The position numbers were made by a program, and so were the translations under genes. Below are positions 21,364-33,718 of a stretch of 64,000 nt of DNA, in pieces. The notes under the pieces were generated by a model that was not told the origin of the DNA, did not search any database, and was given only the letters and a program-made list of their open reading frames with translations. Numbering within the stretch: the first letter of the stretch is position 1; the number at the start of each line of letters is the position of its first letter. This stretch comes from a virus: positions 62,001 through 126,000 of the IMG/VR virus record IMGVR_UViG_3300015360_000024. One strand, 5' to 3'.

Positions 21364-21579
21364 ATGCCGATGAGGATCCAGCCCGATACGATGAGGTCGG
21401 AGATCGACCAAGTGATGGCCATACTCGCTGCCTGGAAAGAGCGACTTGAGGCAGGCGTCCCGGGCGACGAGCTTCCGGCGAACGATCTGAACTCGGAGAT
21501 TTTTCAGTTTCAGTTGCGCGGTGAGCTTCAACTTGCCGGTGAGCGTCTAATGGCGCTTGTTGAGGTTATGGAGCCATGA
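21364..21579 (+). CDS. Small helical protein before the ParB-like gene
   Basis: 71 residues, probably from a leaderless mRNA. Almost all helical (IDQVMAILAAWKERLEAG, LRGELQLAGERLMALVEVM). Its stop overlaps the start of the ParB-like gene, so the two are coupled. No known family. Confidence 0.6.
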   Translation: MPMRIQPDTMRSEIDQVMAILAAWKERLEAGVPGDELPANDLNSEIFQFQLRGELQLAGERLMALVEVMEP

Positions 21580-22352
21580 AGTCAGTTCCACTGAAAACAG
21601 ACCTGGACATCGCTCGAATTGAGGTGGATCCGAATATTCTCGTGGGCGCCGAATGGAACCCTAACGAGATGGAGCAGGCCGAGTTCACATTGCTTAAGCA
21701 GCAGATGGGCGAGGTCGGGTTCATCGATCCGCCAACCGTTGCCGAGGTTGAAGACGCCAAGGGCAAGAGGTTCTATCGCATCATCGGCGGGCATAATCGC
21801 GTCGCTGCCGCCAAGGAGCTTGGCATCAAGCTGATCCCCGTCGACGTACTTCAGGGCGAGCGCTGGAAGGATGAAGACCTTCAGAAGTTGCAGACCGTTC
21901 GCCTGAACGTCCTGCATGGCAAGACCAACCCAGAGAAGATGGTGGCTCTCTACAACGAGATGGCGACCAAATACGGGGCTGCTGTCACGAGCATGCTCGG
22001 TTACACGACCGACCACGGGCTCAAAAAGATGATCAAGCAGGTCAAGGGAGACCTGGCAAAGGCACTTCCGCCAGATCTCCAGGAGCAGTTCAAGGAGCAG
22101 GCGAAGGAAGCCAAGACGGTCTCCGACCTGGAGAAGATCATCAAGCGCCTAATGGATGAGGGTGGAGATACAGCGAAGCATGGCTTCGTGGTCTTCTCGT
22201 GGGGAGGTAAGGAACACATTTACGTCACGATGTCTGATAAGACGCGCGAGGCGATGAAGCGTATTGTCAGAGCTTCCAGGGACAAGAAGGTCGACGTCAA
22301 CGAGATCATCGAAGAGGCCGTCGTGGATGCTGCGAGAGGCCTCAATAACTAG
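21576..22352 (+). CDS. ParB/Srx-fold nuclease-like protein
   Basis: 258 residues. The N-terminal ParB-like domain contains the conserved box YRIIGGHNRVAAAKELG followed by IPVDVL; the GxxR motif is kept. Unlike the protein at the left edge it has no clear HTH; the rest is helical (VSDLEKIIKRLMDEGG) with a small beta region (GFVVFSWGGKEHIYVTM). Such proteins act in partition, as ParB-type nucleases, or as CTP switches. It stands just before the kinase-fold cassette, three bases upstream of the first gene. Confidence 0.75.
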   Translation: MKSVPLKTDLDIARIEVDPNILVGAEWNPNEMEQAEFTLLKQQMGEVGFIDPPTVAEVEDAKGKRFYRIIGGHNRVAAAKELGIKLIPVDVLQGERWKDEDLQKLQTVRLNVLHGKTNPEKMVALYNEMATKYGAAVTSMLGYTTDHGLKKMIKQVKGDLAKALPPDLQEQFKEQAKEAKTVSDLEKIIKRLMDEGGDTAKHGFVVFSWGGKEHIYVTMSDKTREAMKRIVRASRDKKVDVNEIIEEAVVDAARGLNN

Positions 22353-22354
22353 CC

Positions 22355-22669
22355 ATGGCGAACAACGAAGACGATACGACTGGGGACCCACCCGGGCTGC
22401 CTGACGATATCGTCGGAGACTCCAGGCGTATTCGTCTAATCAGCATCGATCCCACCACCGGGCACGACAAATCGATGGTTGGTGAGGCGTGGCAGGATCC
22501 GGATGGCAGTCTTCGTGGAACCGGGATCGCCGCCGTGATGCTGTTTGAACCGCTCTCGAATGAGAAGTACCGCCAGGCGTCTGTGGCGAAGGATATTTCT
22601 CCGCTCTCGGTGTTGTACGCGAGACTCGCTCGGAGTTCGTTCATTCGGGTGGAGCTGGTGGAAAAATGA
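22355..22669 (+). CDS. Small protein, paralogue of the 24266 product
   Basis: 104 residues. SRRIRLISIDPTTG, then GEAWQDPDGSLRGTG, then LARSSFIRVELVEK, align with SRRIRIKTVNLING, DAWQEEDGKLVLSG and IQTFPFIVMEIYD of the second small protein. Each copy overlaps the start of a kinase-fold gene. The conserved spacing suggests a partner or chaperone role for the following kinase-like protein; that is inference. No known family. Confidence 0.6.
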   Translation: MANNEDDTTGDPPGLPDDIVGDSRRIRLISIDPTTGHDKSMVGEAWQDPDGSLRGTGIAAVMLFEPLSNEKYRQASVAKDISPLSVLYARLARSSFIRVELVEK

Positions 22670-24282
22670 CCAGAGACATCGACGAGGCCGCGTTTGGAGC
22701 TGGACTGACGAGGGTCGTTAAGAAGGTCAAGCGTGGTGACAAGACGGTAGATCAGGCCTTCCACGTTAAGAAGGCTGCGCCAGACGATAAGTATGCGGCA
22801 AACAAGCCGTCAGAGATGAAGGTACCCAAGAAGGCAGCTGCGCCAGAGCAAGCACAAGAGCCCGAGGTAGTTCCGCCTGCTGTGAATCAGACCGTCGATC
22901 AGCTGGATGACATGACCGGCGAGGTGCCAGAGCAGGCGGCTCCGACGCGGATTATGGTTCGTACGCGCGAGATTCCCTGGGTCAAGAGGAAGACCGGCAA
23001 GGAAGATGAAGATCCAATCCCGAAGGAGCTGCGCCGGAGATTCGACAAGCGGAGCAAGAAGTCGATCTCAGTGATGGCAAATCCGGCGGTGACTGGGTCG
23101 CCGATCATGACGGTCGTGCCGACGGATAGGATTTTCTGGGGTGCGGACGAGCCCGACCTCCTGATGTCGTTGCGTCACGGCGACATCAAGAAAATGCGCC
23201 TGGTTGGCGGCAGTAACGGGTTGATGATCGCGAAGATTGAGTCTCGCGGCGGCGGCTCGTTCTACGGTTTTATGTGGATGGAGTCGTTGCGCTGCTCGCT
23301 CATCAGGCAACTCTGGGGAGGGGTCATCGACTTCGTGACTGAGGATGGGCCTCTGTCCAGGCGGGCTACCTGCGCCTATGAAGTCTCCAAGGCCTGCGGC
23401 CTGGATGATCTGACGCCGCCAACCGTGCATCGAATCGATGACGACGGCGATATCATGGGGATGTTGCCAGACTCTCTGATTGAGCAAGCGAACGAGTGGG
23501 TTTCGCGCACGACCGGCAAGGATCCGCAGACGGTACGAGAGAAGCTTGGCGCACACGCCACCGTTCAGCTCATTCGTGATGAGCCATGGCCGATCGAATC
23601 GGAGAACTGGTTCAGGGACCTGTTTGGTAGGCCTTCGAACGCTCTCAATAACATCTGGGAAGTAATGCCGCCAGATCGTCGGGTCGGCTTCCTGAGAATC
23701 GCAGCCCTGGATTTTGCAATTGGTTGCCTTGACCGTTCCTGGGGTGACATCGCGTTCTCGAACAACCCAAGGCATCCAGTGATGGTGTTCGGCGGCGAGC
23801 TGTCGATTACTTGCCCGAGGACAATCGGTATCGAGTACGCCACCGGAAACTACGGTAGCTACTCCGATGACGTTCCAGGAACGTTGCCTTTGCTCTGGAG
23901 TGAAGCGCTCACGATGCTGGTGGTTCGAGGCGGGGATGAAGAGATCGCCGGCTTCGAGGAGATCGGTATCAACATCGCCACCCGAATGAAGGACAACCGA
24001 GCGGTTGAGTTGGCGAGGTCATTACTGGAGCACAAGGCAACTCCACTGCAGATCTGCGGTGTTCTGAGCCGCATCTGGATGATGATGACCTGGTCAAAGG
24101 ACATCGCAAAGGACCCGTATTTTGCGGCGCGGTATTACGCTGCCGTGGTTTCCGGTGGAGCCAATCAGATTTTCAAGGGCGTGGAAGACTTCGTTAACAA
24201 CACGATGCACCAGGTGCTCGTGAGGGATTTCGATTTCTACACGGAGATGGAGTCAGGAGGTCCCGATGCAAGCGATCTCTGA
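22666..24282 (+). CDS. Kinase-fold protein with decayed catalytic motifs (PI3/4K-HipA-like)
   Basis: 538 residues. The first 150 are basic and probably disordered. The later part follows the phage PI3/4-kinase/HipA-like pattern: ACAYEVSKACGLDDLTPP, then LRIAALDFAIGCLDRSWGD near residue 354 where D-R-H-x-x-N is expected, then PVMVFGGELSI where the metal-binding D-x-G/D is expected. His is replaced by Ser and the Asn by Asp, and the second Asp is lost, so catalysis is unlikely. It probably serves as a pseudokinase. It is coupled to the small gene before it and overlaps the next. Confidence 0.55.
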   Translation: MTRDIDEAAFGAGLTRVVKKVKRGDKTVDQAFHVKKAAPDDKYAANKPSEMKVPKKAAAPEQAQEPEVVPPAVNQTVDQLDDMTGEVPEQAAPTRIMVRTREIPWVKRKTGKEDEDPIPKELRRRFDKRSKKSISVMANPAVTGSPIMTVVPTDRIFWGADEPDLLMSLRHGDIKKMRLVGGSNGLMIAKIESRGGGSFYGFMWMESLRCSLIRQLWGGVIDFVTEDGPLSRRATCAYEVSKACGLDDLTPPTVHRIDDDGDIMGMLPDSLIEQANEWVSRTTGKDPQTVREKLGAHATVQLIRDEPWPIESENWFRDLFGRPSNALNNIWEVMPPDRRVGFLRIAALDFAIGCLDRSWGDIAFSNNPRHPVMVFGGELSITCPRTIGIEYATGNYGSYSDDVPGTLPLLWSEALTMLVVRGGDEEIAGFEEIGINIATRMKDNRAVELARSLLEHKATPLQICGVLSRIWMMMTWSKDIAKDPYFAARYYAAVVSGGANQIFKGVEDFVNNTMHQVLVRDFDFYTEMESGGPDASDL

Positions 24283-24526
24283 TTCACGGCGAATTCGCAT
24301 CAAGACGGTCAATTTGATCAACGGCGAGCTTGTGCCATCTCAGGCTGCCGATGCTTGGCAAGAGGAAGACGGCAAGCTTGTTCTGAGTGGGCTCTGGGCG
24401 GATCTCGTTCCGTTCGTAGACGAAGATCATGCTTTGGTCGCGGCCGAGCTTGGTGTTTCCCAGCTGGAGTGGCTGCGTATGCGCATCCAGACGTTCCCGT
24501 TTATCGTCATGGAGATCTACGACTAA
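24266..24526 (+). CDS. Small protein, paralogue of the 22355 product
   Basis: 86 residues, overlapping the pseudokinase 3' end by 17 bases and the next kinase gene by one (TAATG). The alignment with the 22355 product spans most of its length (SRRIR start, AWQEEDG middle, FPFIVMEI end). A duplicated gene in front of a duplicated kinase-fold gene points to tandem duplication of a two-gene unit. Confidence 0.6.
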   Translation: MQAISDSRRIRIKTVNLINGELVPSQAADAWQEEDGKLVLSGLWADLVPFVDEDHALVAAELGVSQLEWLRMRIQTFPFIVMEIYD

Positions 24527-25809
24527 TGTCCGGCAGGAAGTCATGGTTGAATCCAAGCGACCTGCTGAAGCCAGGGCGGCTTGCGGCGTTATTCTCTGAG
24601 GACGACAAAACCGCTGTTCTTCCAGTTCCAGCTCCTGGTTTGCAAGCCAAGATAGAGCCGCCGCCGAATGCGGCGCCGTCCATGGCTGGACCGGCGAATG
24701 CTGGCACAGCTCCGTCTGCTCCAGCAGCTTCAGATCACGTAGCGCACTGGTCACCGATGCCGAAGAGGTCCGAGGTCGCCCACGACGAGCCGAGCCTGGC
24801 TTATCGAACCAGGCCAGACCTGGCGTCGCCAGCAGACCGTCATAAAGAGTTCTATGACGCCTACCACAATAAGGGCGCCACCAATAAGACTCTCAGACAG
24901 CACAAGAAGGGCAGCCTCAACGTTGTCTTCCATGGGCAGATGAACACCGGGCATCAGTACATCGCGAAGCCGCACGAAGGCATCGGTCATCGCGATCTGG
25001 ATACGCTGACACCGGAGACCCTGCAGTCGTTGAAGGCCGATGCGATGGATGCCGGCGCCCGGCATGACGCTACCTACGAGTTGATGTCAGCGATGGGCGC
25101 GCACCATATGGTCGTCCCAGGAGCGACGACGAACATGCACGGTCGTCATCAATTCAAGGGTCCAGATCCGGATGCCGACGATAGTCCAAGCAAGCGCCTG
25201 ACGATGGCCGCGCACCACGCCAGAGAGCAGGCGCACATTCAGGAATTCGTTCCAGGAGCGCTCAATGTTCACGACGCGACACCGGAACAGCTGGACAAGG
25301 TCGATGGTGAACACCGACTTCACGGCGTGGTTTCTCACTTGCTGTTCGGAGCCCAGGATGGCCACAGCGGAAACGTGATGATTCATCCTGCAGGTCATCC
25401 GGTCATGATCGACCACGACATGACATTGGCCACTCCGCAGGCCAGCGTAAACAAAGATGTTTTAGGAAAAGAGGCGATACGGTCAGCGTTTGCGCCTGGG
25501 TCGAAACTTGACTATCAAGCCAAATTACCTAAGGATAGTGCAGGTCAAGTGATTCCAGTCGGCAACAACTTCCCTCCTCGGATGCGCGAGACGCTTCAGC
25601 GTGTCGCCGAGGGGTACTACGGGAAAGGCCACGGGTCTCTTGGTCTTTCTGAAAAAGACCATGCCGCACTTCAGAAGAACGCCCGCGAGCTGCTTCTGTA
25701 CGGCATTGAGGGCACCCTGGATCGTCGCGTCAATATCGATACGGTCATGCGCGACAAGAAGGCTGCGAAGGAAGCGCTCAACAGCCAGATCGACGGAGCG
25801 AAATCCTAG
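24526..25809 (+). CDS. PI3/4-kinase-HipA-like kinase with intact motifs
   Basis: 427 residues from ATG 24526. A proline/alanine-rich N-terminus precedes the kinase. The catalytic loop AQDGHSGNVMI (from about residue 276) keeps D-x-H-x-x-N, and VMIDHDMTL (from about residue 291) keeps the metal-binding Asp. A nucleotide-binding Lys may be in GHQYIAKPHEG. These are the motifs of atypical kinases of the PI3/4K-HipA clan, which phosphorylate proteins or lipids. It sits between two decayed relatives. Target unknown; a phosphatase at 2240 is a possible counterpart. Confidence 0.65.
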   Translation: MSGRKSWLNPSDLLKPGRLAALFSEDDKTAVLPVPAPGLQAKIEPPPNAAPSMAGPANAGTAPSAPAASDHVAHWSPMPKRSEVAHDEPSLAYRTRPDLASPADRHKEFYDAYHNKGATNKTLRQHKKGSLNVVFHGQMNTGHQYIAKPHEGIGHRDLDTLTPETLQSLKADAMDAGARHDATYELMSAMGAHHMVVPGATTNMHGRHQFKGPDPDADDSPSKRLTMAAHHAREQAHIQEFVPGALNVHDATPEQLDKVDGEHRLHGVVSHLLFGAQDGHSGNVMIHPAGHPVMIDHDMTLATPQASVNKDVLGKEAIRSAFAPGSKLDYQAKLPKDSAGQVIPVGNNFPPRMRETLQRVAEGYYGKGHGSLGLSEKDHAALQKNARELLLYGIEGTLDRRVNIDTVMRDKKAAKEALNSQIDGAKS

Positions 25810-26114
25810 TGCTGGTCATTTTTGTATTCGATGGAGATCGCGACCGTGTTCGCGAGGTCATCTGGCAAAAGGCAGAGAACCTGGTCGTGTCCAAGCACTG
25901 GTTCCAAGATGGAACCGTCAAGGACGAGGTGCTCGCTGCGGACAACCTCCTTCAGGCACTCGACGAGCGTGGTGGCATATACTCGGTGTGTCACCCGGCC
26001 GAGGTTGGCGATCTGCGCTCAGCGTTCAAGTACCTTGGCAAGTCTGCGGACCTAGTGGAGACTCTGCCAGATGTCGACCTCACCACAGCAATCCAGCCTA
26101 GCGTCGCTCCGTAA
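25809..26114 (+). CDS. Hypothetical protein coupled to the kinase
   Basis: 101 residues from GTG 25809, overlapping the kinase stop by one base and the next gene by 44. It starts with a hydrophobic strand (VLVIFVFDGDRDR), followed by alternating helices and strands. It is not visibly related to the two paralogous small proteins, although its position before the third kinase-fold gene is the same. No family recognised. Confidence 0.55.
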   Translation: MLVIFVFDGDRDRVREVIWQKAENLVVSKHWFQDGTVKDEVLAADNLLQALDERGGIYSVCHPAEVGDLRSAFKYLGKSADLVETLPDVDLTTAIQPSVAP

Positions 26115-27420
26115 GGTCTTCGGATCGCTGTCGCAGCGCAAGCCGAAGCCATCCAAACGCGAGGCCGACCTACCGTCATTTGACGATGCCGCTTTGGTGC
26201 CGGAGCAGTTGCCGGCACAGGCGATGCCACACGAGAAGACCGGAATCGTGTTGGTGCCTTCGCGCCGCATCGACGGATCAGACCTAGATGCGCCATGGAA
26301 TGGTTCGGAGCAAACCATCTGGAACTGGCTGCGAACCACGCCAATTGAGTTCATCGAGGAGCGTGTCCTCACCGGCCTGGATGGAACTTTCTGGGCCCGG
26401 TGTAGGAACGACGAAGGCCGGCTGAGGAGCACGCTGCTGCGTTTCGATACGATCGGTCTAGAAGACCTCTACAAGCTCTGGGGTGTGGAGTATGGGATCG
26501 CGGCGGAGAACCACGACATCCTCAGACGCGAGCAGGCGGCGTACGAGATAGCTAAGGGCCTTGGTTGCGAAGACATGGTTCCTCCGTTGGCGGTGCGGAC
26601 GCTCAATCTGGTTCCGCTGATCTCGGATGCTGTTCGAGAGAAGGTGGCCGCGAAGTATGGAATCGACCCGATTCTCGTCGATGAAACCTACGGGGTCGTG
26701 GGAGCGCTACAGCTTGTTCCGTTGAACGCTCGAAGCTTTGTTGACCACTGGGCCATGCTTGGGCCTGACCCGGCCAGTAGGTTCGCCAGGGCGTCGTCGG
26801 CGCTCAGGTACAGCATGTACCGGCTTATCGCGCTGGACTTCGTGTTGGGTACTGGAAATCGCACGATCGCCAACCTGTTGTTCAACGAGTCCACTGGTTC
26901 CCTGGCGGTTGTCGGCTTTGGTGTAACGCTGGCCAATCCGATGACGGCGGCAGACCATTACCTTGCGCAACGGGCACAGGGCTGGGGTCGGCATATTCCT
27001 GGACCACTGGAAGATCCGGCTCCAGGGGCCCCGCCGTCCGGGACTGATTCGATTTACCTCGCGAACGGTTTCACGGACAGGGAACGCGAGGAGTGCCTGG
27101 CTACGTTCAGGCAGATGTCCGAGGCAACCGACGAGAGAACCGTGGTTCTGCTTTGCCAGATCATGGAGGAGATCGGCATCCCTCGTGAGTGCATCGCAGG
27201 CTTCGTGTCGAGACTGGTGTTCCTCCAGGAGGATCCTGACGCAGTTATCGATAACCCGACCGACCACACCCGCAGCATCCTCGTTCCACTACGCCGTGGG
27301 TTCGCCTTCGACGAGGGCCGCAACCTGAAGGTGGTCGAGACGACGAATCAGATCCTAACGGCAGCAACGGCAGAGGGATTCGACTTTACCTCTGCAATGC
27401 AAGCTCAGCCGGCTCAGTAG
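26071..27420 (+). CDS. Kinase-fold protein with decayed catalytic motifs
   Basis: 449 residues. REQAAYEIAKGLGCEDMVPP matches the helix before the active site in the first family member. The active-site region reads ALDFVLGTGNRTIANLLFN near residue 260 and LAVVGFGVTL where D-R-H-x-x-N and the metal Asp are expected. Asp becomes Asn, His is absent, only the Asn of the loop remains, and the second Asp is missing. Another probable pseudokinase. It ends the cassette just before a palindrome and the terminase promoter. Confidence 0.55.
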   Translation: MSTSPQQSSLASLRKVFGSLSQRKPKPSKREADLPSFDDAALVPEQLPAQAMPHEKTGIVLVPSRRIDGSDLDAPWNGSEQTIWNWLRTTPIEFIEERVLTGLDGTFWARCRNDEGRLRSTLLRFDTIGLEDLYKLWGVEYGIAAENHDILRREQAAYEIAKGLGCEDMVPPLAVRTLNLVPLISDAVREKVAAKYGIDPILVDETYGVVGALQLVPLNARSFVDHWAMLGPDPASRFARASSALRYSMYRLIALDFVLGTGNRTIANLLFNESTGSLAVVGFGVTLANPMTAADHYLAQRAQGWGRHIPGPLEDPAPGAPPSGTDSIYLANGFTDREREECLATFRQMSEATDERTVVLLCQIMEEIGIPRECIAGFVSRLVFLQEDPDAVIDNPTDHTRSILVPLRRGFAFDEGRNLKVVETTNQILTAATAEGFDFTSAMQAQPAQ

Positions 27421-27422
27421 CC

Positions 27423-27438
27423 GCGCAAACACTTGCGC
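27423..27438. repeat. Dispersed palindrome, site D
   Basis: GCGCAAACACTTGCGC, beginning two bases after the stop of the third kinase-fold gene, as site A follows a stop codon. It lies about 30 bases upstream of the putative terminase promoter, whose -35 TTGCGC repeats half of the palindrome. Confidence 0.65.
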
Positions 27439-27465
27439 CAGTATCCCAAGCTACCTTTTGGATGT

Positions 27466-27495
27466 TTGCGCGTGATCAGCTGTTTCGGCTAATAT
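27466..27495 (+). promoter_or_regulatory. Probable promoter of the terminase operon
   Basis: TTGCGC (27466-27471), 18-base spacer, TAATAT (27490-27495); ATG 27507 follows after 11 bases with no Shine-Dalgarno. It has the same TTGCGC -35 as the promoter at 20425. Confidence 0.5.
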
Positions 27496-27506: not shown

Positions 27507-28253
27507 ATGTCGAGCACCACGAGACGTCCGCCGATCCGTCCGGTCAGTAGGGAACCGAAGAAGGCTGCCGCCAGCCTGCAGGAATGCAGATGTTTCGATG
27601 AGGTCGAGCGCAGGCTAAGGCTCGGGTGGTCGGCGCCAGACCTTGTGAAGTTCATCCAAGAGGAAAGCGGGGAGTTGACACACCTGAGCGCTACGTATGT
27701 TCAGAAGATGATCAACGAGTTCAGGAGCACGATTCCTCCGGCCGAGTTGCTGCTGACGACGCAGAACACGAGCGTTGCGGTCCACACGGCTCAGAGGCTC
27801 GCGAACGGCATGTACGAGCTTGAGAAGCTCAACGAGCTGTACGACCTCCAGATGGATCGAATCAAGATCGACGTCGAGAACGAGAAGAAGATCAATAAGC
27901 TCTTCCCGTCGACCGGACGCGAGATTTTCTACGCGATGAAGATTTTGAACCAGGCTTCCGAACTGAAGATGAACCTTGGCATCGCCAAGAGACAGTTGGG
28001 CGAGGTCTCAGTGACCGGAGCGGCGGCCGTGCAGATTGCCGATCGGTACTCCGATGGAGTCGGCAAGGTAATGTCCGACCCAGATAGTCGCCGGAAAGTC
28101 CTCGGCATGGTTGAGACCCTGATGATGGTGGGGGCGCGGGCAAAGCTCGATGCGACTGAGATCATCGCCAGCGCAGCGCATTACGCTGACAGCAAGGTCA
28201 TCGACGTCGACCCTGAGCCTGTGGAGCCGTTTCCCGAGCCCGTGGACGAGTAG
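27507..28253 (+). CDS. Putative terminase small subunit
   Basis: 248 residues, directly before the large terminase (2-base gap). The N-terminal part has a likely DNA-binding helical domain (CFDEVERRLRLGWSAPDLVKF, then LSATYVQKMINEFRST in segments), followed by long helices suited to oligomerisation (LANGMYELEKLNELYDLQMD) and an acidic C-terminal tail rich in Pro, Glu and Asp. No sequence family is recognised. The role is inferred from position, size and domain order: recognise phage DNA and present it to TerL. Confidence 0.6.
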   Translation: MSSTTRRPPIRPVSREPKKAAASLQECRCFDEVERRLRLGWSAPDLVKFIQEESGELTHLSATYVQKMINEFRSTIPPAELLLTTQNTSVAVHTAQRLANGMYELEKLNELYDLQMDRIKIDVENEKKINKLFPSTGREIFYAMKILNQASELKMNLGIAKRQLGEVSVTGAAAVQIADRYSDGVGKVMSDPDSRRKVLGMVETLMMVGARAKLDATEIIASAAHYADSKVIDVDPEPVEPFPEPVDE

Positions 28254-28255
28254 TC

Positions 28256-30262
28256 ATGGCGATTATCGATCTCGGCGGTCGCGTCAGGAGCGAGCAGACC
28301 AAGGAAGAGTTGGTCCGCATGCTCAGTAAGGAGTTCGCGAACCTCTCCGACGACGAGAAACAGGCGGTGATGCTCTGTCTGCGCGAGATGGATGATCCAG
28401 CCTTCAATGAGCTGGAGGAGAAGGGCGAGGTTGTACCAACCCGTATCTATGATGTCCTGACTGATGCCGAGTACATTCGCAAGCCCGTCGACATGGAGAC
28501 GTTCGTCCGGGATCCGTACTACCTCGGCAAGACCTGCGACGTTCTCTATCCAAAGCTGATGGAAGACATGAACGAGCTATTCGCTGGTAACTACCGCGAA
28601 ACCATTCTGTCAGGGTCGATTGGTTGGGGTAAGTCGTTCTTTGCGTCCATTGCAGCCTGTCGAATCATCTACGAGCTGTCGTGTATGCGCGATCCGCATA
28701 AGAGCTTCGGCATCGGTAAGGGCTCTGATATTTCCTTCGTCGTGCTCTCGGTCAAGGAAGACCTCGCCATCAAGGTCGCCTTTGAGAACATCGCGAACAA
28801 GATCAAGGAGAGCGACTACTTCAAGGATAATTTCGCATTCAAGCCGATGAAGAAGGAGATTATTTTCCCAAATCACATCCAGGTGGCAGCGCGTGCGTCA
28901 ACCGATAGCGCTGCCCTTGGTTTGAACGTCTTCTCCGCATGGATCGATGAGTCGAACTTCCTGGCCCCTATGAAGAAGAAGGGATCTATTGAGAGCCGGG
29001 TCGGCAATACAGACAGGGCTTCGTTTCTCTACGACCAGCTCATCCGTCGTATGAAGTCGCGCTTCCAGCGTCACGGGAAGCTGCCAGGTATGATGATCGT
29101 TGTCTCGTCGAAGCAGACCAGGGACGACTTCACCGCCAAGCGCATTCGTGAGTCGAAGGACGACCCGACGGTGTTCGTTCGCGACTACGCCACCTGGCAC
29201 GTCAAGCCGGATGGGATTTTCTCAAAAGAGGTCTTCCACGTTCTGGTTGGTAACGACCTCATTCCTTCGAAGGTGCTCGATCCTGAAGAGGTGCCCATAC
29301 TGCGCGAGAAGCTACAGGAGGGAATGCTCATCATCGAGGTCCCGATCGACTTCAAGAACGACTTCGTCAACAACGTCGAAGACTCGATTCGCGATATCGC
29401 CGGCATTGAGACGGTCTCCATCTCGCCGTTCATCCAGCAGCGCAATAAGATCGTTCCAAACATTGACATCAACCGCTCGCACCCGTTCACTACGGAGGCG
29501 TGGGTGCAGACCGAGGGTGGCCGATTCATCTGGTCGAAGCTTGCCCATCAGATTGAAACACGCGAAGGGGCGTCACTCGTTCGCGAGTGGCAGCCGCTGT
29601 TCCATGCTGGTTCAGCAAGGCACGTCCATATCGACCCGTCGCTGAACGACGACTCGACTGGTTTCGCCGTTGGCTGCGTGACCGGCTATAAGATGGTGTC
29701 TCGCAGAGATCCTGAGACACAGGAACTATTCACGGAGCGCGCACCGGAGATCTGGGTCGATTTCCTTCTGCGTATCAGCCCGCCCGTCGGTGGCGAAATC
29801 GACCAAGCAGGATTGAGGTCGCTCATCTACCAGTTTCAAGCGAAGGGCTTCTCTGTCAGCTTCGTCTCGGCAGATCAGTTCAACTCAGCCGACACCCTGC
29901 AGCAGCTTGCTCGGAAGGGGCTGACGACTGAGCGAATCTCTGTCGACAAGCCGATGGACGCCTACGACATCCTCAAGCAAGCCCTCTATGAGAACCGGCT
30001 GAGCTTCTACGATTACCGACCACTTCTCGATGAGTTGAAGTGGATCCAGAAGGACAACATCCGCAACAAGGTCGACCACCCAGCTGGTAAATCGAAGGAT
30101 GTGGCCGACGCCTTGGCAGGCATCGTCTTCACGTTGACGACGATGTATCACGGCGCCCCGATGGGGGTGTACAAGGGGTTGTCGCAGCACTCAGATCCAC
30201 AGCAAGAGGAACAGCGCGAGATTGTGGACGACGATGGACCACTGCCTTTCTTGATAGGATGA
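28256..30262 (+). CDS. terL: Terminase large subunit
   Basis: 668 residues. ATPase: Walker A SGSIGWGKS near residues 118-126 and Walker B VFSAWIDES with the Asp-Glu pair near 229-230; the coupling motif is probably in MMIVVSSKQT. RNase H-like nuclease: HIDPSLNDDSTGFAVG (first Asp near 459), VSADQFNSAD, and the final acids in KSKDVADALAG. It drives DNA into the prohead and cuts the concatemer. The full length and all acids suggest an active enzyme. Followed at once by a leaderless-type start signal. Confidence 0.93.
   Translation: MAIIDLGGRVRSEQTKEELVRMLSKEFANLSDDEKQAVMLCLREMDDPAFNELEEKGEVVPTRIYDVLTDAEYIRKPVDMETFVRDPYYLGKTCDVLYPKLMEDMNELFAGNYRETILSGSIGWGKSFFASIAACRIIYELSCMRDPHKSFGIGKGSDISFVVLSVKEDLAIKVAFENIANKIKESDYFKDNFAFKPMKKEIIFPNHIQVAARASTDSAALGLNVFSAWIDESNFLAPMKKKGSIESRVGNTDRASFLYDQLIRRMKSRFQRHGKLPGMMIVVSSKQTRDDFTAKRIRESKDDPTVFVRDYATWHVKPDGIFSKEVFHVLVGNDLIPSKVLDPEEVPILREKLQEGMLIIEVPIDFKNDFVNNVEDSIRDIAGIETVSISPFIQQRNKIVPNIDINRSHPFTTEAWVQTEGGRFIWSKLAHQIETREGASLVREWQPLFHAGSARHVHIDPSLNDDSTGFAVGCVTGYKMVSRRDPETQELFTERAPEIWVDFLLRISPPVGGEIDQAGLRSLIYQFQAKGFSVSFVSADQFNSADTLQQLARKGLTTERISVDKPMDAYDILKQALYENRLSFYDYRPLLDELKWIQKDNIRNKVDHPAGKSKDVADALAGIVFTLTTMYHGAPMGVYKGLSQHSDPQQEEQREIVDDDGPLPFLIG
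30252..30260 (+). promoter_or_regulatory. Extended -10 for a leaderless start
   Basis: TGA followed by TAGGAT (30255-30260), then exactly six bases to ATG 30267. It overlaps the 3' end of terL. No Shine-Dalgarno. Confidence 0.55.
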
Positions 30263-32887: not shown

Positions 32888-33718
32888 ATGCATCTGGTCG
32901 GCAGCAAGGAGTGGCGAGACGAGAAGCGCTTGGCGATGCCGCCGGGTGTTTGCTCGAATTTTCCATACTGCAGCCGGCTCGCCGCTAGCGGAAAGAAGCG
33001 CTGCCACTCCTGCCTGGAACGACTCGGCAAGTGGCGTCGAGCCAAGAGAGCCGTCGAGGTTAAGACGCCAGACGTTTGCAGCGTTCATGAATGCGGCAAG
33101 TTGATCGAGGCACCGCACAAGATGTGCGCGGCCTGTCGAGCCGTCTCGAACGACGGGGTCAAGAAACGGAACCGTCTCCTCAAGGAGGAGGTTCTGGTCG
33201 CCTATGGCAGTAAGTGCGCTTGTTGTTCCGAGGCCGGCCGGTCGTTCTTGTCCATCGATCACGTCAACGGTTACGACGGCACTGGACCAAGGAAGAGCCA
33301 GCCGCTGTACAGGTGGCTGAAGAAGAACGGATACCCGACCGGATTCCAGGTTCTCTGCATGAATTGCAATGGCTCTCGTGGTTACTACGGATACTGTTCG
33401 CATCGGCGTAGGGAGGCTGCAAACGATCGATTCGACAAAGATCGAACTAAATCATTTGCTCGAAAACGTGCAGTATTCGACCGATATGGCGGTTCCGCTT
33501 GCGCGTGCTGCAATGAGCAGACGTTTGAGTTCCTTTGCCTGGATCACGTCAACGGCAATGGGGCCGAGCATAGGCGTGAGATCGGCGCTGGAGTATCCAT
33601 GATTTCATGGGTCGCGATTAATGGTTACCCGGCAGGATTCCAGGTTCTTTGTATCAACTGCAATTTTGCCAAAAGAGACGGCGAGAGTTGCTCGCACTCC
33701 AAGGCTAAGGTAGCGTAA
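32888..33718 (+). CDS. Tandem-HNH homing endonuclease-like protein
   Basis: 276 residues. Two copies of an HNH-type zinc nuclease unit follow each other. Copy one has CACCSEAG, SIDHVNG and FQVLCMNCN (residues about 112-170); copy two has CACCNEQ, CLDHVNG and FQVLCINCN (residues about 205-260). Before them are two smaller Cys-rich units (CSNFPYC...CHSC and CSVHEC...CAAC). Both HNH copies keep the Asp-His pair and the final Asn, so both may be active. It sits immediately upstream of the portal gene, a typical place for a phage homing nuclease. Confidence 0.7.
   Translation: MHLVGSKEWRDEKRLAMPPGVCSNFPYCSRLAASGKKRCHSCLERLGKWRRAKRAVEVKTPDVCSVHECGKLIEAPHKMCAACRAVSNDGVKKRNRLLKEEVLVAYGSKCACCSEAGRSFLSIDHVNGYDGTGPRKSQPLYRWLKKNGYPTGFQVLCMNCNGSRGYYGYCSHRRREAANDRFDKDRTKSFARKRAVFDRYGGSACACCNEQTFEFLCLDHVNGNGAEHRREIGAGVSMISWVAINGYPAGFQVLCINCNFAKRDGESCSHSKAKVA
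33688..33716 (+). promoter_or_regulatory. Probable portal promoter, leaderless type
   Basis: TTGCTC (33688-33693), 17-base spacer, TAGCGT (33711-33716), then exactly six bases to portal ATG 33723. It overlaps the stop of the preceding gene. No Shine-Dalgarno. Confidence 0.5.

What the first reader, a model, noticed from the sequence alone, without database searches (positions are those of the whole stretch)
22355..27420. Tandem cassette of one intact and two decayed kinase-fold proteins with small partners
Three genes share a PI3/4K-HipA-like layout. The middle one (24526) keeps D-x-H-x-x-N (AQDGHSGNV) and IDHD. The first has LDRSWGD with FGGE, and the third has GNRTIAN with VGFG, so both should be catalytically dead. 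They form one overlapping operon behind a ParB-like gene and directly before the terminase. An active kinase flanked by two pseudokinases could form a hetero-complex that modifies a host or virion target. I know no described phage system with this organisation, but I cannot search for one.
Basis: partly seen in the sequence, partly recalled or inferred. Interest (0 to 1): 0.8.

Follow-up and report, generated by a model that had tools for sequence, protein, structure and literature searches.

The report
Phage pseudokinase pair with optional kinase
A group of uncultured, roughly 200-kb tailed phages carries, beside its DNA-packaging genes, two conserved catalytically dead relatives of a kinase, each paired with a small partner gene, and usually a third, intact kinase that can be lost together with its own small partner; no phage system of this make-up turned up in the cultured-phage records or papers searched.

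Summary
The window is 64 kb of a 194-kb uncultured phage record (IMG/VR). Six overlapping genes at 22355-27420 encode three large and three small proteins. Profiles from eight or nine relatives show that all three large proteins are homologous and kinase-fold (closest: PI3/4-kinases; HipA itself not supported). The 24526 product keeps Lys, Asp, Asn and the DFG-position Asp in 8/8 phages. The other two (pk1, pk2) lack the catalytic His in 18/18 sequences and the DFG-Asp in 17/18, yet are under strong purifying selection: conserved pseudokinases, not decaying genes.

pk1 and pk2 are paralogs, and so are small1 and small2: the backbone is a duplicated (small + pseudokinase) module. Kinase plus small3 is a separate two-gene unit sitting inside it. 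One relative (L036), sister to a kinase carrier, has the backbone but neither kinase nor small3. Kinase and small3 also evolve fastest. A 3.3-kb small2-kinase-small3-pk2 block was swapped recently between two diverged phages.

Nine IMG/VR records carry the full set in fixed order before TerS/TerL. No match was found in 50,697 cultured-phage records. Function and complex formation remain inferred.

The parts
21576..22352 (+). ParB-like protein (258 aa), conserved upstream neighbour
   Evidence: phrog_26387 E 2e-51; adjacent to the cassette wherever the locus reaches that far
22355..22669 (+). small1 (104 aa), paralog of small2
   Evidence: hhalign small1 vs small2 E 2.8e-13; conserved in 9 phages
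22666..24282 (+). pk1, pseudokinase (538 aa)
   Evidence: paralog of pk2 (hhalign E 9e-29); catalytic His lost 9/9, DFG-Asp replaced by Gly 9/9
24266..24526 (+). small2 (86 aa), paralog of small1; directly precedes pk2 in the kinase-less phage L036
24526..25809 (+). kinase (427 aa), PI3/4-kinase-like; K148, D278, H280, N283, D296
   Evidence: K, D, N and DFG-D in 8/8 relatives, H in 7/8; PF00454 in 4/4 close members; Foldseek hits dominated by PI3K/PI4K, though E>=0.039 on a low-confidence model
25809..26114 (+). small3 (101 aa, GTG start); kinase-linked, not detectably related to small1/small2
   Evidence: absent together with the kinase in L036; hhalign not significant vs small1/2
26071..27420 (+). 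pk2, pseudokinase (449 aa)
   Evidence: homologous to the kinase (hhalign 41.7, 0/300 shuffles); His lost 9/9, DFG-Asp lost 8/9; PF00454 E 0.0046
27507..28253 (+). candidate small terminase subunit (248 aa), by position and conservation
   Evidence: conserved just before TerL in nearly all related loci; no functional family hit
28256..30262 (+). terminase large subunit (668 aa)
   Evidence: phrog_2 E 1.5e-6; 360 phage records by tblastn

Best explanation
The cassette is a duplicated two-gene module, (small1 + pk1) and (small2 + pk2), whose large proteins are pseudokinases that kept the kinase fold as a binding scaffold, with an intact PI3/4-kinase-like enzyme and its own small partner (small3) sitting between small2 and pk2. 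Most likely mechanism: pk1 and pk2 assemble with small1 and small2 into a scaffold made at the same time as the packaging proteins; the kinase binds that scaffold through contacts between the related folds, as in known kinase-pseudokinase pairs, and small3 controls or targets it, so that phosphorylation of a host or phage protein is confined to that complex. The scaffold also has a role of its own, because it persists where kinase and small3 are gone. Shown: gene content, homology, fold class, loss of catalytic residues, purifying selection, kinase-small3 linkage, fixed synteny with ParB and TerS-TerL. Inferred: complex formation, catalytic activity, substrate, timing of expression.
For: Homology of all three large proteins: pk1-pk2 hhalign E 9e-29; kinase-pk2 score 41.7 vs maximum 25.5 in 300 shuffles, with alpha-C helix and catalytic loop in register. 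Kinase class: PF00454 in 11/26 members, also DUF4135 and ABC1. Catalytic residues: kinase K/D/N/DFG-D 8/8; pseudokinases His 0/18, DFG-D 1/18. Pseudokinases constrained: dN/dS 0.04-0.16. L036 lacks kinase and small3 but keeps small1-pk1-small2-pk2 and is sister to kinase-bearing L026 with 99/98 support, so loss is the simplest reading. Kinase and small3 have the highest dN of the cassette genes in the L027-L030 pair and, within the exchanged block, in the L022-L029 pair. Recent exchange of small2-kinase-small3-pk2 as one block between L002 and L003: dS 0.22-0.35 inside vs 1.6-3.9 in flanking genes, edges near gene boundaries. Fixed gene order before TerS and TerL in 9 records.
Against: No direct evidence of any physical complex. 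The kinase can be dispensed with while the pseudokinases persist, which also fits two unrelated functions. The alpha-C Glu is kept in 18/18 pseudokinases but only 3/8 kinases, so kinase activity is not certain. Both AlphaFold models are of low confidence (pLDDT 49 and 53), and Foldseek gave no hit at E<=0.001. The exchanged block is one event and could be an ordinary recombination tract.
Confidence: 0.4

Rival explanations
1. The pseudokinases and small1/small2 are purely structural or packaging proteins (for example internal virion proteins or packaging-complex subunits next to ParB, TerS and TerL). The kinase + small3 pair has a separate function and does not work through them.
For: Strict synteny next to TerS/TerL in all carriers; the backbone survives without the kinase; strong constraint on pk1/pk2.
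Against: The kinase is itself homologous to pk2, so it is not a random passenger by descent; kinase and pk2 moved together in the exchanged block.
Confidence: 0.3
2. Kinase + small3 act as an independent effector with its regulator (host takeover, superinfection exclusion, or a toxin-antitoxin-like pair), without needing the pseudokinases.
For: Kinase and small3 are absent together in L036 and both evolve fastest, small3 with dN/dS 0.68 between L022 and L029. Precedents: the T7 and 933W kinases and the HipA-family kinase of 'Gratiaviridae' (PMC8008677).
Against: The kinase lies inside the pseudokinase module in every carrier, with conserved gene overlaps; small3 has no antitoxin or DNA-binding family hit.
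Confidence: 0.2
3. The three large proteins are not kinase-fold; the motif resemblance is coincidental.
For: The window proteins' Pfam hits are below the curated cut-off and the structure models are weak.
Against: Kinase-pk2 homology is significant against shuffles and unrelated families; PF00454 is by far the commonest hit across 26 members; Foldseek hits of the kinase model are mainly PI3K/PI4K; four key residues are conserved in 8/8 kinases.
Confidence: 0.06

Closest known systems
PI3/PI4-kinase family (PF00454)
   Same: Catalytic D-x-H-x-x-N loop followed by an Asp-containing metal motif (IDHD) in the kinase; the matched stretches of kinase and pk2 fall on the same part of the Pfam profile
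   Different: The window proteins score below the family cut-off (14.8 and 17.4 vs 27.1 bits); no sequence match to any solved structure; a lipid substrate is unlikely in a phage of bacteria (own knowledge)
HipA-family kinase of 'Gratiaviridae' phages (PMC8008677)
   Same: Phage-encoded kinase placed among late head genes
   Different: A single kinase with an ATPase and a glycosyltransferase as neighbours, no pseudokinase paralogs described; our proteins have no HipA Pfam hit
Fam20A-Fam20C and ROP5-ROP18 kinase-pseudokinase pairs (PMC5413348, PMC3493473)
   Same: An active kinase accompanied by pseudokinases; the ROP pair acts on a host
   Different: Eukaryotic, no sequence relation shown; here the pseudokinases persist without the kinase
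T7 protein kinase gp0.7
   Same: Phage kinase; precedent for phosphorylation of host proteins
   Different: A single kinase acting early in infection (PMC8008677), not linked to packaging genes
Polyvalent proteins with kinase domains (PMC5512222)
   Same: Phage kinase domains predicted to act on host proteins, in phages with portal-terminase packaging
   Different: Those are a distinct truncated protein-kinase group in large multidomain proteins; ours are separate genes with pseudokinase paralogs

Membership tests
PI3/PI4-kinase (PF00454) | Curated Pfam gathering score reached | tested here: not met
   Window proteins score 14.8 and 17.4 bits vs 27.1
PI3/PI4-kinase (PF00454) | Catalytic Asp, His, Asn and metal-binding Asp | tested here: met
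   Kinase D 8/8, N 8/8, DFG-D 8/8, H 7/8; not met by pk1/pk2
PI3/PI4-kinase (PF00454) | Bilobal PI3K/PI4K fold | tested here: inconclusive
   Models pLDDT 49 and 53; best Foldseek hits PI3K/PI4K at E 0.04-0.18
HipA kinase / hipBA toxin-antitoxin | HipA Pfam domains in the kinase | tested here: not met
   No HipA family listed at E<=1 among 26 members
HipA kinase / hipBA toxin-antitoxin | Upstream HTH antitoxin (HipB) | tested here: not met
   No DNA-binding family in small1, small2 or small3
Pseudokinase | Common descent with an active-looking kinase | tested here: met
   kinase-pk2 0/300 shuffles; pk1-pk2 E 9e-29
Pseudokinase | Loss of catalytic and metal-binding residues | tested here: met
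   His lost 18/18, DFG-Asp lost 17/18, Asn lost 17/18
Pseudokinase | No phosphotransfer activity | not testable with these tools
   Needs an assay
Kinase-pseudokinase complex (Fam20A-Fam20C, ROP5-ROP18 type) | Direct physical pairing and allosteric control | not testable with these tools
   Needs co-purification or a complex structure

The most novel reading that the evidence does not exclude
A phage packaging or virion-assembly module built on a duplicated pseudokinase scaffold, with an exchangeable kinase that phosphorylates a target presented by the scaffold: a kinase-pseudokinase signalling complex working inside phage morphogenesis or host takeover.
Probability: 0.25. Interest if true: 0.8.

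Novelty: new variant of a known kind. Interest (0 to 1): 0.55.

Why it matters
Few phage kinases have been characterised (PMC8008677 counts two), and the searches made here found no description of phage pseudokinases that evolved as a conserved set beside an active paralog. The kinase-less phage is a natural deletion: it makes testable whether pseudokinases work as scaffolds independently of the kinase, and the exchanged block is a natural swap. If linked to packaging, the cassette would add a regulatory layer to a well-studied machine.

Tried and rejected
HipA/HipBA reading: rejected, no HipA or HTH family hits. Reading the place before TerS as a general effector slot in distant relatives: rejected; of the proteins checked there, five look like family-A DNA polymerases by inspection. 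Small3 as a third member of the small1/small2 family: not supported. Cassette homologs in cultured phages: P0001, P0002, P0003 and two divergent relatives gave no match; a profile search of seven annotated phages with related TerL was also empty. Two scans of genome contigs (GTDB species genomes) found none. PDB profile searches with A11 and A12 gave only chance hits. Sigma-70 promoters in the region: none found, fewer than in shuffles. Rfam: nothing. Viral fold library for pk2: no meaningful match. A first kinase-pseudokinase profile comparison with few sequences was not significant and became so only with the added relatives. Literature searches for phage pseudokinases or PI-kinase-like proteins near terminase: none.

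Full report
What is there. The window is G000:C1:62001-126000 of a 193,958-bp IMG/VR virus record. It encodes replication and recombination genes upstream (DnaB-like helicase, primase, UvsX-like recombinase, exonuclease, RuvC-like resolvase), then the cassette, then a TerS-like gene, TerL, portal, head protease, major head protein and tail sheath: a myovirus. The six cassette genes overlap one another and begin 2 nt after a ParB-like gene.

Relatives. Protein and profile scans of IMG/VR found the same gene set in eight further records: L002/L022, L003/L029, L018/L023, L019/L028 (near-identical to L018), L024, L026, L027/L068 and L030, that is seven distinct further phages. One record, L036 (on a 42-kb contig), has ParB-small1-pk1-small2-pk2-TerS and no kinase or small3 anywhere on that contig; small2 and pk2 overlap directly there. 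A TerL tree puts L036 sister to L026, which has both genes, with 99/98 support, so loss of a two-gene unit is the simplest reading. L036 is a fragment, so a kinase elsewhere in its genome cannot be excluded. More distant relatives (TerL about 47% identical) show no cassette homolog by HMM.

Fold and homology. pk1 and pk2 are paralogs (hhalign E 9e-29), and so are small1 and small2 (E 2.8e-13). With eight kinases and nine pk2 proteins the kinase-pk2 comparison scores 41.7; 300 column shuffles reach at most 25.5, a reversed control 17.6, and unrelated families of the same phages 13-17. Kinase-pk1 is weaker (6 of 300 shuffles reach it) but follows through pk2. Pfam scanning of 26 members gives PF00454 in 11, DUF4135 in 3, ABC1 in 2, and single weak hits otherwise. 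In the window proteins the PF00454 matches cover profile positions 138-176 (kinase residues 268-305) and 123-177 (pk2 residues 238-292); counting along them puts kinase D278/H280/N283/D296 and pk2 N263/T265/N268/G282 on about the same columns (inference from coordinates). The AlphaFold models were weak (pLDDT 49 and 53), but the Foldseek list for the kinase is dominated by PI3K/PI4K chains, and the two best for pk2 are PIK3C3. All these E-values are above 0.001, so this is supporting evidence only.

Catalytic residues. Kinase: beta-3 Lys 8/8, catalytic Asp 8/8, His 7/8, Asn 8/8, DFG-position Asp 8/8; alpha-C Glu only 3/8. pk1: His 0/9, Asn replaced by Asp 9/9, DFG-Asp replaced by Gly 9/9. pk2: His 0/9, Asn 1/9 (the window's own), DFG-Asp 1/9 (L024). 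The alpha-C Glu is kept in all 18 pseudokinases, so part of the fold core is conserved while the chemistry is lost.

Selection and modularity. pk1 and pk2 have dN/dS of 0.04-0.16 where dS can be estimated; in the L027-L030 pair dN is 0.13 for pk1 and pk2 and 0.30 for kinase and small3. Between L002 and L003, nucleotide identity is about 70% in pk1, rises to about 95% at the start of small2 and falls to about 60% just after pk2; it dips inside the block, mainly within the kinase gene. dS is 0.22-0.35 in small2, kinase, small3 and pk2, and 1.6-3.9 in ParB, small1, pk1 and TerS. A block of roughly 3.3 kb was thus exchanged recently as a unit. It is one event, and saturated dS values are imprecise.

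Mechanism. The data fit a scaffold of two pseudokinases with two related small proteins, to which a kinase and its own partner small3 are an optional, faster-evolving addition. By analogy with Fam20A-Fam20C and ROP5-ROP18 (PMC5413348, PMC3493473) the pseudokinases could activate or place the kinase, but their persistence in L036 means they should also act without it. The position before TerS/TerL suggests expression with the packaging genes; the promoter scan neither supports nor refutes this.

What is known. PMC8008677 describes a HipA-family kinase among the head genes of 'Gratiaviridae' and states that only two phage protein kinases had been characterised. Polyvalent proteins include another kinase group (PMC5512222). 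Neither describes kinase and pseudokinase paralogs together. The literature searched is an open-access library only, so a description elsewhere cannot be excluded.

Noticed in passing
L003:12161-16552; L036:8411-11659; L020:10722-13688: TerL genes in several relatives carry intein-like insertions at different places (two in L003), while the window TerL is uninterrupted.
   Followed up: partly
L020:4894-9498 and L059:2710-7134: In two distant relatives a 1475-1534-aa multidomain protein lies just before TerS. It has an HD-x-FGAN ... GVDKE motif that looks kinase-like by eye and a C-terminus that looks ART-like by eye; no Pfam or PHROG hit for the L020 protein.
   Followed up: partly
L002:9660-13000 against L003: Sharp-edged recombination tract of about 3.3 kb covering small2-kinase-small3-pk2 between two otherwise diverged phages.
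   Followed up: yes
window 27422-27472: Perfect 10-bp inverted repeat CGCGCAAACA/TGTTTGCGCG with a 31-nt spacer in the gap between pk2 and TerS; not found in the same form in three relatives.
   Followed up: partly
L024:4034-5395: pk2 of this phage still has Lys, Asp and DFG-Asp at the active-site positions, with His and Asn lost: possibly an intermediate stage of loss.
   Followed up: no
L003:8001-9650 and L002:9912-11504, C-terminal parts: The kinases of L002 and L003 have a long Ala/Pro/Lys-rich tail ending in a repeated SVQ(R/K)AL motif, absent from the window kinase.
   Followed up: no
window 32888-33718: 276-aa protein with two similar Cys-rich HNH-like halves just before the portal gene (by inspection).
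   Followed up: no
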